NCBI GenBank assembly: GCA_022823465.1
Contig: JAJEHX010000044.1
Location: 1 to 62,632 of the forward strand
Direction: 5' to 3'
Origin: Candidatus Latescibacterota bacterium
Lineage (GTDB): Bacteria > JAAXHH01
DNA: 62,632 nt
The position numbers were made by a program, and so were the translations under genes. This document shows positions 1 through 9,252 of this stretch, piece after piece. Position 1 is the first letter of the stretch, and every line of letters begins with the position of its first letter. The notes under the pieces are model-generated. The model worked only from the letters and a program-made list of their open reading frames with translations. It searched no databases and was not told the origin of the DNA.

Positions 1-231
1 GACGTCCAGTCCTTCGTCCCCCGGAACGAACGGACCAGGGCAATCCGGACGGCCCTCGATAAACTGGGAAGGGAGAGCCGGGAACTGGTCATTCTGCGAT
101 TCATCGAGCAATACACCTACGCGGAAATCGCGTCGGTCACCGGTTCGTCGGAATCGGCGCTGCGGGGCAAGGTGTACCGGGCGCTACGTAGACTCCGTAA
201 AATCATGGAGGGCGATCCCAGTGGATTGTAA
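1..231 (+). CDS. ECF-type RNA polymerase sigma factor, C-terminal part (region 4), 5' truncated by window edge
   Basis: Frame 1 is open from the first base to a TAA at 229-231 and encodes 76 residues. The text reads as sigma-70 region 4: a helix ending ELVILRFIEQYTYAEIASV, then a turn and recognition helix (TGSSESALRGKVYRALRRLR). That is the helix-turn-helix that contacts the -35 element. Region 2 lies outside the window, so the ECF group cannot be assigned. The stop codon lies inside the next gene: the GTG start of the anti-sigma fusion at 221 overlaps this gene by 11 bases in another frame, which suggests translational coupling of a sigma/anti-sigma pair. Seen: the HTH and the overlap. Inferred: that it belongs to the ECF class. 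Confidence 0.85.
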   Translation, partial: DVQSFVPRNERTRAIRTALDKLGRESRELVILRFIEQYTYAEIASVTGSSESALRGKVYRALRRLRKIMEGDPSGL

Positions 232-1111
232 CGAAGCGAGACAGTACCTGGATCAAATCAGAACAGGCAAGGCGGACGATGAAGCGAGCCGGGCCGTGGC
301 GGAACACCTGGAAGCGTGCGCCGATTGCCACGAAGAGGCTGCTTTTCTGAAGAATCTTGTCGTGGAATCTCCCAATCTGAAACTAAACGCCCCCGCGGGG
401 ATCAAGGAGGAAGTGATGATCAGGATCGCAGACCGATATGATGTCATCGACACGGATTTCGGGCCGGCGCACGTGGGATGTACGCCCAAGGGCATATCGG
501 CGGTAAAACTCGACGTGGAGGAGGACGGTGCCTTCGAATCGTACTACGAAGACAGGCTTGGGCGGATTGTAGTCCGGGGTTCCCTGCCTTCGGCATTGGC
601 CCAGGCAGTCAGACGGGCCATAAAGGGGGAGAAAACCGCGCCGCCGCCGGTCACGCTCGAGGGGCTGACCGAATTCGAAAAGACCGTCCTGGAGCACCTG
701 GCCAGGATTCCGTCGGGCGAGGTCCGTCCCTATGCCTGGCTGGCAAGGGAAGTAGGCAGGCCCAAGGCAATCCGCGCGGTCGGGACGGTCATGGCCCGCA
801 ATCCCGTTCCCTTCCTGATGCCCTGCCACCGGCTCGTACCCTCGACCGGAGGCGTGGGGAACTATTACTATGGGCCGGAAATGAAATGGACCCTGCTGGA
901 GCGGGAGGGGATCGCCAGAGAGGATCTCGCGGGCTGGAAGCAACGCGGCGTGCGCTTTGTCGGTAGCCGCACGACCGGTATCTACTGTTATCCGACCTGC
1001 CGCGACGCTCGGCGTATCCAGCGGCAGCATCGTCTTGAATTCACCAGTCCCGGCGAGGCGGCGGAAAAGGGGTGCCGCCCGTGCAAACACTGCAGGCCGC
1101 TGTCTGCATAG
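221..1111 (+). CDS. Anti-sigma zinc-finger / O6-alkylguanine-DNA methyltransferase / Ada zinc-binding fusion protein
   Basis: This 296-residue protein has three recognisable parts in one frame. Residues 1-50 look like a zinc-binding anti-sigma domain with an H-x3-C-x2-C motif (HLEACADC). Residues about 75-230 are an MGMT-type methyltransferase with a 1N-like lead-in and the PCHR active site, acceptor Cys202. Residues about 245-296 are an Ada metal-binding domain: RTTGIYC with Cys256 and Cys260, then CRPCKHC with Cys288 and Cys291, spaced as in E. coli Ada, where the first of the four cysteines takes methyl from phosphotriesters. The order is inverted relative to Ada and there is no AraC HTH. 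The start is GTG 221, overlapping the sigma gene. Inferred role: an alkylation-sensing anti-sigma factor that releases its sigma when methylated. The domains are clear; the mechanism is a hypothesis. Confidence 0.88.
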   Translation: MDCNEARQYLDQIRTGKADDEASRAVAEHLEACADCHEEAAFLKNLVVESPNLKLNAPAGIKEEVMIRIADRYDVIDTDFGPAHVGCTPKGISAVKLDVEEDGAFESYYEDRLGRIVVRGSLPSALAQAVRRAIKGEKTAPPPVTLEGLTEFEKTVLEHLARIPSGEVRPYAWLAREVGRPKAIRAVGTVMARNPVPFLMPCHRLVPSTGGVGNYYYGPEMKWTLLEREGIAREDLAGWKQRGVRFVGSRTTGIYCYPTCRDARRIQRQHRLEFTSPGEAAEKGCRPCKHCRPLSA

Positions 1112-2033: not shown

Positions 2034-2148
2034 GGGTGCACCTTGGTCGAAGGAAAGATTATGATCAGACGGGCGGATTGCCGCGTCGATGAATATACCG
2101 TCATAAAACGCTTGAGACAACCCTTTGCATCGGTTAAATAATCCGTAT

Positions 2149-2958
2149 ATGGACGACAAGACACATACGGCGCTTATTTCGCTCGACCTCGCTCCGGGCG
2201 CGTCTATTGACGACGTAAAGAAATCGTACCGGGAACTGGCGTTGATCTGGCATCCAGACAAGGTGCCCGACCGGGTGAAGGACCGGGCAACGGCGAAGTT
2301 CACGGAGATCAACGAGGCCTACCAGTGGCTGGTTCGGAACCCGGAAAAACTGCGGATGTCCTCATATTCTGGGTCATCATCCCAACGGCAATCGCCGCCA
2401 GGTTATCGCACTTCCACGCGGACCTACCAAACTCAGTCGGAGCGGAACCGGTCGGAGCATGCCCGGACCGGCGCTTCCGGTCGAACGGGAGCCGGCGCCT
2501 CAGGTCGAACGGGAGCCGGGGCCTCCGCCGATCCGGCTGTTCAACGAGTACGACAGGCCGCACGTGGCATCTGGACTGATGCCCGCGCGGGACTGTACAT
2601 CTTCCCGGACATCGACGCCGACCGGGCGGCGAACTTCGTCGTTTCGCTGCAGCAGAATAGCCGCTTCAGAGGTGTGGCCGCGACGGTGAACGACCTGCTG
2701 GTATTCTACGACATCGACGGTTCCGGCGAGGAAGGCATGGCCATCACCCGTTCCGATCACCTGGTCAACAACAACACCTCGACGCTGTACGACATCGGCG
2801 ACCTGGTGGAGGTCAATCTGAAAGAGGGCTTCTTCTTCTGGAGCGAGATCAAGGTGAGGAGAAGGGGAAGCAGAACGTTCGAACTGGCGGGATACGCGGA
2901 AAAGGCGCCGGGCAGGGCGCTTGTGGGGATCTTGAAGAACCTGGTCGGCGACGCCTGA
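2149..2958 (+). CDS. J-domain (DnaJ-like) protein with C-terminal PH-like domain
   Basis: The product is 269 residues from ATG 2149; a TTG at 2125 in frame is less likely. Residues 1-65 form a J domain with the HPD motif (ALIWHPDKVPDRVK), which stimulates DnaK-type ATPases. Residues about 75-125 are a low-complexity linker with direct repeats (GASGRTGAGASGRTGAGASA). The C-terminal 130 residues include FYDIDGSGEEGMAITRSDHL, a pattern I associate with bacterial PH-like domains in which a predicted strand follows a T-x-x-x-L(V/I) segment; that assignment is tentative. A degraded second copy of the linker plus C-terminal domain lies at about 4757-5274. No DnaK or GrpE gene is adjacent, so this is not a core chaperone operon. 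Confidence 0.75.
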   Translation: MDDKTHTALISLDLAPGASIDDVKKSYRELALIWHPDKVPDRVKDRATAKFTEINEAYQWLVRNPEKLRMSSYSGSSSQRQSPPGYRTSTRTYQTQSERNRSEHARTGASGRTGAGASGRTGAGASADPAVQRVRQAARGIWTDARAGLYIFPDIDADRAANFVVSLQQNSRFRGVAATVNDLLVFYDIDGSGEEGMAITRSDHLVNNNTSTLYDIGDLVEVNLKEGFFFWSEIKVRRRGSRTFELAGYAEKAPGRALVGILKNLVGDA

Positions 2959-4580: not shown

Positions 4581-4756
4581 TAGCTCGGAACCAAGTTACC
4601 CATCTTCGAACCCATATCGTTTGTCAGAATCCGTCGAATGACTAATTAGTCGGAATTTTGTCCACGATCTCGTTTACTTCAAATCTCTGCTTGCGTATCA
4701 AATCAATTACGGGGAGCCTTAGCGGGCTCGATCTGGTTCGTCCAGCCCGACGCCAA

Positions 4757-5274
4757 AGGAGAGGGCATGCCCGGACCGGCGCTTCCGATAGAAGGGGATC
4801 AGGCGCCTCCAGTCGCGCTGGATCCGGATCATCTGCTGACCCGGCTGTTCAGCAAGTACAACAGGCCGCCGCGTTATCTGGACTGATGCCCGCTCGGGCC
4901 TGTACGTCTACTCTGAAATCGACGCCGACCGGGCGGCGAACTTCATCGTTGCGCTGCAACAGAACGGCCGCTTCAGAGGTATGACCTCGACGGTGAACGA
5001 CTTGCTGGTCTTCTACGATATCGACGGATCCGGCGAGGAAAGCATGGCCATCACCAGGTCGAACCACCTGGTCAACAACAACACCTCGACCCTGTACGAC
5101 ATCGTCGACCTGATAGAGGTCAGTCTGAAAGAGGGGTTCTTCTTCTGGATTGAAATCCTGGTGCGGAGAAGGGGAACGCGTCAATTCGAATTGGCGGGAT
5201 ATGCGGAAAAGGCGCCGGGCAGGGCGCCAGCGGACATTCTTAAGAACCTAGTTGGAGAGAATCGTGCTGGATGA
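4757..5274 (+). pseudogene. Broken second copy of the J-domain protein (linker and C-terminal domain only)
   Basis: From GGCATGCCCGGACCGGCGCT onward the DNA is a diverged copy of 2451-2958. The J domain is absent. Relative to the intact gene there is a one-base deletion near 4865-4875 (after the GTACAACAGGCCGC stretch), so the upstream part reads in one frame and the conserved C-terminal part (VNDLLVFYDIDGSGEESMAI) in another. A short ORF from ATG 4981 to 5274 keeps 97 residues of the C-terminal domain and could still be translated. I call it a pseudogene of a partial duplication. Confidence 0.75.
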
Positions 5275-6259: not shown

Positions 6260-6910
<651 letters not shown>

Positions 6911-7193: not shown

Positions 7194-7877
7194 TCACACC
7201 GGCCACTGCTCCTTCCGATACCCCATGTCCCAGAACATCCACTCGTACCGGCTGGTCGTGATGTAGTGGTTCAGCATGGCTTCCCGGTCCTCGTCGGAGA
7301 GCCCCTCGGAGATGCGGTTCGTAATCTCGAGGACGGCGACGACGCACTCGGCGAATTGCTCGCCGGCGTAGGTGTCGATCCACTGCTGGTACATGGGATC
7401 GGGCGATCCCTGCTCGGCCAGCGCCTTGCCTACCTCCCAGTAGATCCAGTAGCACGGCAGCACGACAGCCACGACCTCGTGGTAGGGACGGCCGTAGGCC
7501 ACCGACAGCAGGTAGCTCGTGTACGCCTGGCACGCGGGAGCCTTGGGTGTCGCCCAGACCTGATCCGCCGACAGGCCGAAAACGTCGAAGAAGTGCTCCT
7601 GCATGGCCCGCTCTTCCACGAGACAACCCTTGGCGTGGTCGTTGAAGAGGATGATACTGTCCTCGTCCGGTGCCTTCGCGGCGGCGAGGCTCAGTGCCCT
7701 GGCGTAGTCCTTGAGATACAGCGCGTCCTGGACGGTGTAGAATTCGAAGGCCGACCGGTCCAGGTTACCCGACGTGAGCCCCTTGATGAAGGGATGGGCG
7801 AGGATCGCTTCGTAGATCGATGCCGTCTCCGACCACATGAGATCGGTGATGGTTCCTGTCGCCGATGCGGTCGTCAT
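7194..7877 (-). CDS. tenA: TenA family protein (thiaminase II / aminopyrimidine aminohydrolase)
   Basis: The 227-residue product has the length and all-helical pattern of TenA, which hydrolyses aminopyrimidines to salvage the thiamin pyrimidine moiety in the cytosol. The catalytic cysteine context AVVLPCYWIYWEVG is intact, and the C-terminal RYEWMFWDMGY motif with its acidic and tyrosine residues is present. The start ATG 7877 has GGGAG upstream. No other thiamin gene is adjacent, and I could not find a TPP riboswitch in the 268-bp gap upstream. It is divergent from the XRE-ImmA gene. Confidence 0.92.
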   Translation of the reverse strand: MTTASATGTITDLMWSETASIYEAILAHPFIKGLTSGNLDRSAFEFYTVQDALYLKDYARALSLAAAKAPDEDSIILFNDHAKGCLVEERAMQEHFFDVFGLSADQVWATPKAPACQAYTSYLLSVAYGRPYHEVVAVVLPCYWIYWEVGKALAEQGSPDPMYQQWIDTYAGEQFAECVVAVLEITNRISEGLSDEDREAMLNHYITTSRYEWMFWDMGYRKEQWPV

Positions 7878-8145: not shown

Positions 8146-9252
8146 ATGACGACAGGGCTTATCGGCAGGCGCATCAAGGCGTTACGAGAGAAACGCGGGC
8201 TCTCTCAAGAGCGTGTAGCGGAGATCTTCGGCTTCAGGGACCGGCAGACCGTATCGGCTATCGAGACGGGCGCCAGACGCGTGACGGCGGAGGAACTGCT
8301 GCTCGCTGTCGAAAGTCTGGACGCTCCGCTCGATTACTTTACCGACCCGTTCCTGCTTGCGGGCGAAGGACGCTTCTCCTGGCGCCAGACCCGCGTCGAC
8401 GTTGAGCGGCTCGAAGCCTGTGAACAAAGCGCCGGCCGCTGGATTGGCGCGTTCCGCAGCCTGGCGCCACAGGTCGGATACGAAACCCGGTTGATGCGGC
8501 GGGCGCTCAGACTCACCCGCCGTGCGCGTTTCGAGGACGCCATGGCGGCCGGCGAGCGGTTTGTCACCGAATTCGACCTCGGCGAAGTCCCCGCCGTGCG
8601 TCTCGTGGAGGTCATGGAACGCGAACTCGGCATCCTGGTGCTCATGATGGATACCGAGCGCGGTATCTCGGGCGCGGCCTGCCGCCTGCCCGAACTCGAC
8701 GCGGTGCTGATCGCGCGACGTGAAGTCATCGGACGCCGTCACTTCGATCTCGCCCATGAGCTGTTTCATATCCTGACCTGGGATGCGATGCCGCCCAGGC
8801 ACACCGAGGAAGTGATGGAGACCGGAGGCAACCGCGCCGAGCAACTTACCAACAATTTCGCGGCGGCGGTTCTGATGCCGGCCGCCACCCTGGCGAGGTT
8901 TGGAAGCTGGTCGGACCTCGCCGAAGAAAAGTTGATCCGGAGACTCCACACGGTGGCGAACGAGTTGCGCGTGACGGCCTCGGCGCTAAGATGGCGGCTG
9001 GTCGCACTCGACAGATTGAAACCTGTGGTTGCGCGTTCCCTGCCGGATGCGGCATTGCGCAACAACAGACCAGACATCGCCGAGAACATACCGCCCGCCC
9101 TGTTCTCGAAACCCTTCATGGAGGTGCTCGGACTTGCGATCGATAGGGGATGCGTCTCGGTGCGTGGTGTTGCCGGTTTGCTCGAACTGAACATCGAGGA
9201 TCTCGTAGACCTCTTCGCAGCACATGGCGTCCAGTGTGCAATCGACTTGTGA
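8146..9252 (+). CDS. XRE-family HTH / ImmA-IrrE metallopeptidase fusion (probable antitoxin-regulator)
   Basis: The 368-residue product has an N-terminal XRE helix-turn-helix (residues 7-60, LREKRGLSQERVAEIFGF). A Zn-peptidase of the ImmA/IrrE family (COG2856) follows, with H204-E-L-F-H208 and a downstream glutamate at 232 (NRAEQLTNNFAAAVLMP). ATG 8146 has GGGAGGG upstream. Six bases separate its stop from the PIN gene, indicating one operon. In the family, ImmA cleaves its cognate repressor; HTH-COG2856 proteins also occur as antitoxins in predicted type II toxin-antitoxin pairs. Here it probably represses the operon through the ATATTGNATAT sites and controls the PIN protein. Confidence 0.9.
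   Translation: MTTGLIGRRIKALREKRGLSQERVAEIFGFRDRQTVSAIETGARRVTAEELLLAVESLDAPLDYFTDPFLLAGEGRFSWRQTRVDVERLEACEQSAGRWIGAFRSLAPQVGYETRLMRRALRLTRRARFEDAMAAGERFVTEFDLGEVPAVRLVEVMERELGILVLMMDTERGISGAACRLPELDAVLIARREVIGRRHFDLAHELFHILTWDAMPPRHTEEVMETGGNRAEQLTNNFAAAVLMPAATLARFGSWSDLAEEKLIRRLHTVANELRVTASALRWRLVALDRLKPVVARSLPDAALRNNRPDIAENIPPALFSKPFMEVLGLAIDRGCVSVRGVAGLLELNIEDLVDLFAAHGVQCAIDL

What the first reader, a model, noticed from the sequence alone, without database searches (positions are those of the whole stretch)
1..1111. ECF sigma factor paired with an anti-sigma factor fused to both Ada DNA-repair modules
One continuous frame joins a zinc-type anti-sigma head (H-x3-C-x2-C), an MGMT domain with PCHR (acceptor Cys202) and a C-terminal Ada zinc domain with Cys256, Cys260, Cys288 and Cys291. 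The gene overlaps the 3' end of a sigma factor gene. In E. coli Ada, methylation of a zinc-bound cysteine switches DNA binding. Here the same chemistry is attached to an anti-sigma factor, and the domain order is inverted with no AraC domain. A simple hypothesis is that alkylation damage methylates the sensor and frees the sigma factor. I am not aware of a described system of this design.
Basis: partly seen in the sequence, partly recalled or inferred. Interest (0 to 1): 0.84.

Follow-up and report, generated by a model that had tools for sequence, protein, structure and literature searches.

The report
Anti-sigma factor built from Ada modules
Several unrelated groups of bacteria pair a gene-switch protein (an ECF sigma factor) with a partner that joins a sigma-holding head to the two suicidal DNA-repair parts of the Ada protein, which suggests that repairing methylated DNA itself turns the switch on; the design appears undescribed, although the switching step has not been tested.

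Summary
ORF 221-1111 joins an anti-sigma head, an MGMT domain (PCHR, Cys202) and a C-terminal Ada zinc domain (Cys256/260/288/291), and overlaps the 3' end of an ECF sigma gene. The sigma gene is cut by the contig start; its other half apparently ends contig C32.

It is not an artefact. All 11 sampled congeners keep it (82-88% identity). The three-part fusion also occurs in another bacterial class (17 genomes; 15/15 loci read keep the zinc head, Ada cysteines and adjacent sigma). Variants exist: head+MGMT without Ada-Zn (64/81 genomes of one class), and MGMT+Ada-Zn without the full head in Actinomycetota. Every fusion locus read has an ECF sigma directly upstream; nearly all these sigmas group together (moderate support).

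A promoter core, AAC-N16-GNGTT, precedes sigma at 47 of 51 MGMT-Ada loci, implying autoregulation. In the window's genus that operon is essentially its only genomic site.

Corrections: the head's zinc ligands are incomplete in 10 of 13 relatives, so zinc is unlikely to be the sensor. Sigma-MGMT neighbourhood was already noted as ECF122 (mechanism unknown).

Best reading: sigma plus anti-sigma head replace Ada's AraC domain, and methylation frees sigma. The direction of the switch is inferred, not shown.

The parts
1..231 (+). 3' end of an ECF sigma factor gene (region 4, last 76 residues, stop TAA 229-231); the 5' part is outside the window, apparently at the end of contig G000:C32
   Evidence: PF08281 4.4e-13, PF04545 2.8e-9; C32 end carries a sigma region 2 ORF and the promoter; full-length orthologues directly upstream of the fusion in congeners
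221..1111 (+). Fusion gene: anti-sigma head + MGMT + Ada zinc domain, 296 aa, GTG start, overlapping the sigma gene by 11 nt
   Evidence: ORF; Pfam; conserved in all 11 sampled congeners with sigma adjacent
221..433 (+). Anti-sigma (class I ASD) head, residues 1-71: helices 3-15, 20-32, 34-53 and helix 4 at 61-69; zinc-type ligands Cys3 (227-229), His29 (305-307), Cys33 (317-319), Cys36 (326-328)
   Evidence: RsrA 4e-6; zf-HC2 weak here, above cut-off in relatives; best PDB sequence match RsiW; AF2 full-length model; Foldseek top matches RsiW, ChrR
431..913 (+). MGMT (O6-methylguanine-DNA methyltransferase) region, residues 71-231; DNA-binding domain at 151-231 (671-913)
   Evidence: PF01035 8e-26; best PDB match E. 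coli Ada-C 1sfe 1.3e-32; structure match 1sfe 4e-11
824..826 (+). Cys202 codon, methyl-acceptor cysteine of the PCHR motif
   Evidence: invariant in 29 aligned fusion proteins; PCHR in 67 of 67 proteins
947..1099 (+). Ada zinc (methylphosphotriester acceptor) domain, residues 243-293; Cys256 (986-988), Cys260 (998-1000), Cys288 (1082-1084), Cys291 (1091-1093)
   Evidence: PF02805 2.3e-9; N-Ada 1adn 3e-9; structure match 1u8b, 42% identity; four-Cys pattern in all 51 untruncated MGMT-Ada proteins

Best explanation
A two-gene, self-amplifying alkylation-response module. The ECF sigma factor recognises its own promoter (AAC-N16-GNGTT) and thereby transcribes sigma and its partner. The partner is at once regulator and repair protein: its N-terminal anti-sigma head holds the sigma factor, and its MGMT and Ada-zinc modules take methyl groups from DNA onto Cys202 (O6-methylguanine) and Cys256 (methylphosphotriester). 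Irreversible methylation, or the DNA binding that follows it, changes the partner so that sigma is released, and the operon makes more repair protein until unmethylated partner again captures sigma. Sigma plus the anti-sigma head thus do the job of Ada's missing AraC domain. Shown here: architecture, conservation, sigma pairing, promoter motif, intact catalytic and zinc cysteines. Inferred: sigma binding, methyl transfer by this protein, and release on methylation.
For: Fusion in all 12 genus genomes and independently placed in class of G670 (17 genomes full length). Sigma directly upstream at all loci read: 13 Latescibacterota, 24 Actinomycetota and relatives, 15 of G670's class, 15 of G443's class. 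Head is an anti-sigma domain: RsrA 4e-6; zf-HC2 over the Pfam cut-off in L014 and in G670; RsiW as best PDB sequence match (E 0.015); top Foldseek matches RsiW and ChrR, with MucA and RslA below (weak individually). Catalytic Cys202, His203, Arg204, Tyr171, Arg185, Asn194, Tyr215, Glu229 invariant. Ada four-Cys pattern 51/51. Promoter core at exactly N16 in 47/51 loci against 4 hits in 408 tests at eight other spacings. No conserved box upstream of -35 (0.18-0.20 bits per column in actinobacterial sets), so sigma rather than DNA-bound Ada appears to define the promoter. Sigmas with an MGMT partner group together apart from 22 other ECFs of the same genomes (47 rows, support 89/83; Latescibacterota plus G670 class 100/99).
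Against: No experiment. Actinobacterial members lack head helices 1-3 and keep only a short helix, so holding sigma by a full ASD cannot be the mechanism everywhere. Zinc ligands of the head are incomplete in 10 of 13 Latescibacterota proteins. In the G443 class the Ada-Zn domain is absent, so it is not essential to the pairing. No second target promoter was found in the window's genus, so the response may be confined to its own operon. AF2 confidence in the head is moderate (pLDDT about 70-76 in the full model; 59 alone).
Confidence: 0.6

Rival explanations
1. Positive switch: the methylated partner is a co-activator. As with E. coli Ada, which contacts RNA polymerase sigma, methylation turns the partner into a helper that binds its dedicated sigma and stimulates transcription from the operon promoter; the head is a tether, not an inhibitor.
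For: Methylated E. coli Ada is an activator and works with the sigma subunit (PMC4437013). Actinobacterial members dispense with the three-helix inhibitor head yet keep sigma pairing and promoter.
Against: Head relatives with solved structures are inhibitors. No conserved DNA element beside the promoter for a DNA-bound activator. Gene order and overlap (sigma, then partner) is the usual sigma/anti-sigma layout.
Confidence: 0.18
2. The head is a thiol/redox anti-sigma switch of the RsrA type, and MGMT-Ada are merely the output (repair enzymes carried on the regulator), not the sensor.
For: RsrA is the best-scoring named anti-sigma model for the window's head; the zinc motif is complete in the window protein and in all 30 loci of the two other classes.
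Against: Zinc ligands are incomplete in 10 of 13 Latescibacterota proteins and the head is absent in Actinomycetota, while the MGMT cysteine is kept everywhere and the Ada cysteines wherever the Ada domain is present. The conserved part is the methyl-transfer chemistry.
Confidence: 0.12
3. In the window's genus the head is degenerating and no longer regulates; the fusion is simply a repair enzyme co-transcribed with a constitutively active autoregulated sigma.
For: Loss of zinc ligands in most congeners; narrow regulon.
Against: Head length, helices and 20 invariant positions are kept across 13 proteins; sigma and promoter kept in all congeners examined; zinc-free anti-sigma domains are common and functional (PMC7406223).
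Confidence: 0.07

Closest known systems
E. coli Ada (adaptive response regulator)
   Same: Both methyl-acceptor modules are present and closest in sequence to Ada itself (1sfe for MGMT, 1adn/1u8b for the zinc domain); protein is both repair enzyme and apparent regulator of its own operon.
   Different: Order inverted (MGMT before the zinc domain), no AraC DNA-binding domain, an anti-sigma head instead, and a dedicated ECF sigma factor in the same operon.
ECF122 sigma group (reported MGMT neighbour, mechanism unknown; PMC8999054 citing the 2021 ECF re-classification)
   Same: ECF sigma with a 6-O-methylguanine DNA methyltransferase gene beside it; our Actinomycetota loci with sigma plus MGMT alone (L067, L068, L073) look like this.
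   Different: The review lists no anti-sigma and no Ada-Zn domain for it. The window's type has an anti-sigma head and the Ada zinc domain. Group assignment of the sigma could not be run here.
Soluble zinc anti-sigma factors (RsrA, ChrR, RslA; RsiW head)
   Same: N-terminal class I anti-sigma domain, gene directly downstream of and overlapping its ECF sigma gene, autoregulatory promoter; ChrR and others also carry a sensor domain C-terminal to the head.
   Different: Sensor part is a pair of suicidal methyltransferase modules; zinc ligands of the head are often lost.
Bacillus AdaA/AdaB
   Same: Use the same two methyl-acceptor chemistries to induce repair genes (own knowledge).
   Different: AdaA keeps the AraC DNA-binding domain and AdaB is a separate MGMT; no sigma or anti-sigma.

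Membership tests
Class I anti-sigma domain (ASD/ZAS) proteins | Three-helix N-terminal domain followed by a fourth helix | tested here: met
   AF2 helices 3-15, 20-32, 34-53, 61-69; RsiW best sequence match and top structural match, individually weak; zf-HC2 over cut-off in L014 and G670
Class I anti-sigma domain (ASD/ZAS) proteins | H-x3-C-x2-C zinc motif (zinc-type subset only) | tested here: inconclusive
   Present in the window protein; complete in 3/13 of its family, 30/30 in the two other classes, 0/24 in Actinomycetota
Class I anti-sigma domain (ASD/ZAS) proteins | Gene adjacent to its ECF sigma gene | tested here: met
   11-nt overlap in the window; sigma directly upstream at every fusion locus read
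Class I anti-sigma domain (ASD/ZAS) proteins | Binds and inhibits the sigma factor | not testable with these tools
   no complex prediction or assay available
Ada adaptive-response regulator | Ada zinc domain with four cysteines including the methyl acceptor | tested here: met
   PF02805 2e-9; 51/51 untruncated MGMT-Ada proteins keep the four cysteines
Ada adaptive-response regulator | AraC-type DNA-binding domain | tested here: not met
   no such domain in Pfam or NCBIfam scans
Ada adaptive-response regulator | Order Ada-Zn, AraC, MGMT | tested here: not met
   MGMT 151-231 precedes Ada-Zn 243-293
MGMT / Ogt methyltransferase | PCHR active site with supporting Tyr, Arg, Asn, Tyr, Glu | tested here: met
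   Y171, R185, N194, C202, H203, R204, Y215, E229 invariant in 29 proteins; the equivalence to human AGT residues is own knowledge
ECF122 sigma group | Sigma sequence belongs to ECF122 | not testable with these tools
   no ECF-group models held; the defining paper is not in the library
ECF122 sigma group | MGMT gene in the neighbourhood | tested here: met
   fusion contains MGMT and is adjacent; sigma-plus-MGMT-only loci fall near it in the tree

The most novel reading that the evidence does not exclude
A widespread, ancient class of sigma/anti-sigma systems gated by suicidal methyl transfer from DNA: the repair reaction on the anti-sigma factor is itself the signal. The ancestral partner had head, MGMT and Ada-Zn, and lineages later dropped the Ada-Zn (class of G443) or most of the head (Actinomycetota). 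It would be a second, AraC-free solution to the adaptive response to alkylation.
Probability: 0.58. Interest if true: 0.88.

Novelty: new variant of a known kind. Interest (0 to 1): 0.8.

Why it matters
The adaptive response to DNA alkylation is known through Ada, where methylation of a zinc-bound cysteine switches a DNA-binding activator. This module seems to reach the same end with a sigma/anti-sigma pair, making a DNA-repair event the direct input of a sigma factor. It gives a concrete, testable mechanism for a sigma group (ECF122-like) listed as having an unknown one, and predicts alkylation-inducible promoters in phyla with no studied Ada response. A minimal two-gene, irreversible methylation-triggered switch would also be a useful biosensor part.

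Tried and rejected
Assembly artefact or frameshift joining two genes: rejected, the fusion is conserved in 11/11 congeners and in another class. Zinc/redox sensing by the head as the main signal: disfavoured by ligand loss. A broad repair regulon in the window's genus: exact and relaxed promoter searches in 12 genomes found only the operon itself consistently; an off-by-one spacing search served as an unplanned negative control and did not hit the operon. A conserved Ada box upstream of the promoter: none seen (the Latescibacterota value, 0.40 bits per column, is raised by close relatedness). A conserved repair neighbourhood: none; only the sigma-partner pair is constant. Library searches for a paper on an Ada- or MGMT-fused anti-sigma or an alkylation-responsive ECF found none beyond the ECF122 remark. 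The ECF re-classification paper itself is not held.

Full report
What is in the window. The window begins at base 1 of contig G000:C40. Bases 1-231 are the end of an ECF sigma factor gene (region 4, PF08281 4.4e-13). The next gene starts with GTG at 221, overlaps the sigma stop by 11 nt and runs to 1111. It encodes 296 residues in one frame: a head with C3, H29, C33 and C36; an MGMT region with PCHR (Cys202); and a C-terminal Ada zinc domain with Cys256, Cys260, Cys288 and Cys291 (PF01035 8e-26, PF02805 2.3e-9). The missing 5' half of sigma appears to lie at the end of contig G000:C32, whose last ORF reads as sigma region 2 and carries the promoter described below. The next gene downstream (1200-2312) is on the other strand, so the operon is two genes long.

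The head is an anti-sigma domain. zf-HC2 alone is weak for the window protein (E 0.017, below the curated cut-off), but the head alone matches the RsrA model at 4e-6 and nine of 13 Latescibacterota heads weakly match an anti-sigma model. zf-HC2 passes the Pfam cut-off in the G012 protein (26.6 against 22.2 bits) and in the G670 protein (23.0). A profile of the heads finds RsiW as its best PDB sequence (E 0.015). AF2 gives four helices, 3-15, 20-32, 34-53 and 61-69, and the two best Foldseek matches of the head model are RsiW and ChrR, with MucA and RslA further down (E 0.5 to 8). Each is individually weak; together they agree. Published work places anti-sigma helix 1 on sigma4 and helix 4 on sigma2, and notes that zinc-free domains are common (PMC7406223).

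The repair modules look functional. The closest solved structures are E. coli Ada-C (1sfe) and N-Ada (1adn, 1u8b), not a generic Ogt. Y171, R185, N194, C202, H203, R204, Y215 and E229 are invariant in 29 aligned proteins. All 51 untruncated MGMT-Ada proteins keep the four Ada cysteines; the one exception in the count is the G012 protein, cut by its contig end.

It is conserved and modular. The fusion is present in the window's genome and all 11 sampled congeners (82-88% identity) and, cut by a contig end, in the neighbouring genus (G012). A broad search found new lineages. In the class of G670, 17 genomes carry the full three-part fusion; 15 of 15 loci read keep the H-x3-C-x2-C head with the first cysteine, MGMT, the Ada-Zn cysteines and a sigma gene directly upstream. 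In the class of G443, 64 of 81 genomes carry head plus MGMT without Ada-Zn; 15 of 15 loci read have sigma upstream. In Actinomycetota (19 of 296 sampled genomes) and related MAGs, MGMT plus Ada-Zn follows sigma, often with an ATGA overlap, but the head is reduced to a short helix of the form APxGLxxxV before the MGMT. Three further Actinomycetota loci have sigma plus MGMT alone (L067, L068, L073).

Sigma lineage. In a 70-sequence tree, 47 of the 48 sigmas next to MGMT proteins lie on one side of a branch, apart from 22 other ECF sigmas of the same genomes (support 89/83, moderate; L176 is the exception). Latescibacterota and the G670 class, which share the full fusion, are sisters at 100/99. 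Parsimony suggests an ancestral head-MGMT-Ada-Zn partner with later loss of Ada-Zn in the G443 class and of most of the head in Actinomycetota; this is inference.

Promoter. Directly upstream of sigma lies AAC-N16-GNGTT: CGAACGAAAAC..GGTGTTGTA in Latescibacterota, CGAACGAAAC..CGTGTTGTT in the G670 class, TGCAAC..GGGGTTCT in Acidimicrobiia and TGAAAC..GTGTTGTA in other Actinomycetota. With spacing exactly 16 it occurs in 12/12, 14/15 and 21/24 loci of the three groups; eight other spacings give 4 hits in 408 tests. In many Actinomycetota the -10 element ends only a few bases before the sigma start codon, and nothing upstream of -35 is conserved. It is absent in the G443 class (0/15), whose partners lack Ada-Zn. 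In 12 genomes of the window's genus, exact and two-mismatch searches find the operon's own site (not the divergent one of G004) and otherwise only scattered hits near control level, plus one weaker site shared by five genomes that was not followed up. The simplest reading is a narrow, autoregulated operon.

Mechanism. Established knowledge: Ada's cysteines accept methyl groups irreversibly, and methylated Ada activates transcription with its AraC domain and contacts to RNA polymerase (PMC4437013). Here AraC is gone and a dedicated sigma with an anti-sigma-like partner is present. The most economical model is that unmethylated partner holds sigma, methylation releases it, and the operon amplifies itself until repair is complete. 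Loss of head zinc ligands in 10 of 13 Latescibacterota proteins, against complete retention of the methyl-acceptor cysteines, argues that methylation rather than zinc or redox chemistry is the signal. The direction of the switch is not shown; a co-activator model fits the headless Actinomycetota proteins about as well.

Novelty. ECF122 was listed with 6-O-methylguanine DNA methyltransferase neighbours and unknown mechanism (PMC8999054). No paper in the library describes an anti-sigma fused to MGMT or Ada-Zn; the primary ECF classification is not held, so this is not proof of absence. I file it as a new variant of sigma/anti-sigma signalling that works like Ada without being an Ada protein.

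Noticed in passing
window 2125-2958 and about 4658-5274: A DnaJ-domain protein gene has a second, frame-shifted partial copy of its C-terminal part about 2 kb downstream, beyond an intervening gene on the other strand.
   Followed up: no
window 6260-6910: Short ORF resembling the N-terminal part of a type I restriction methylase (HsdM), apparently a remnant; judged by eye only.
   Followed up: no
window 7194-7877 and 8146-9252: ORFs that look like a TenA-type protein and an HTH plus ImmA/IrrE-type metallopeptidase regulator; judged by eye only.
   Followed up: no
L041 3157-3558, L042 514-921, L044 3825-4373: An ArsC-like (low-molecular-weight phosphatase type) gene sits just upstream of sigma on the same strand in three of the MGMT-Ada loci.
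   Followed up: partly
L206, L214, L218, L220, just downstream of the fusion: A SpoIIE/RsbU-like phosphatase ORF follows the three-part fusion on the same strand in several genomes of the G670 class; its link to the module is unknown.
   Followed up: partly
L191-L205 upstream of sigma: Loci with head plus MGMT but no Ada-Zn lack the AAC-N16-GNGTT promoter core (0/15), so loss of Ada-Zn and a different promoter go together.
   Followed up: partly
L044 (record titled Acidobacteria MAG): Its sigma and fusion nest within the Acidimicrobiia group, which suggests transfer or a mislabelled bin.
   Followed up: no
L176 (G402) 790-2013 of the reverse strand: Another sigma plus MGMT-Ada-Zn pair whose sigma falls outside the main clade (long branch), possibly an independent pairing.
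   Followed up: partly
G005, G001, G002, G004, G008 (L101, L102, L110, L106, L099): A weaker promoter-like site (GATCGAAACGxGGCGGGACGATGTTGTA, two mismatches) recurs in five congeners; whether it precedes a gene was not checked.
   Followed up: no
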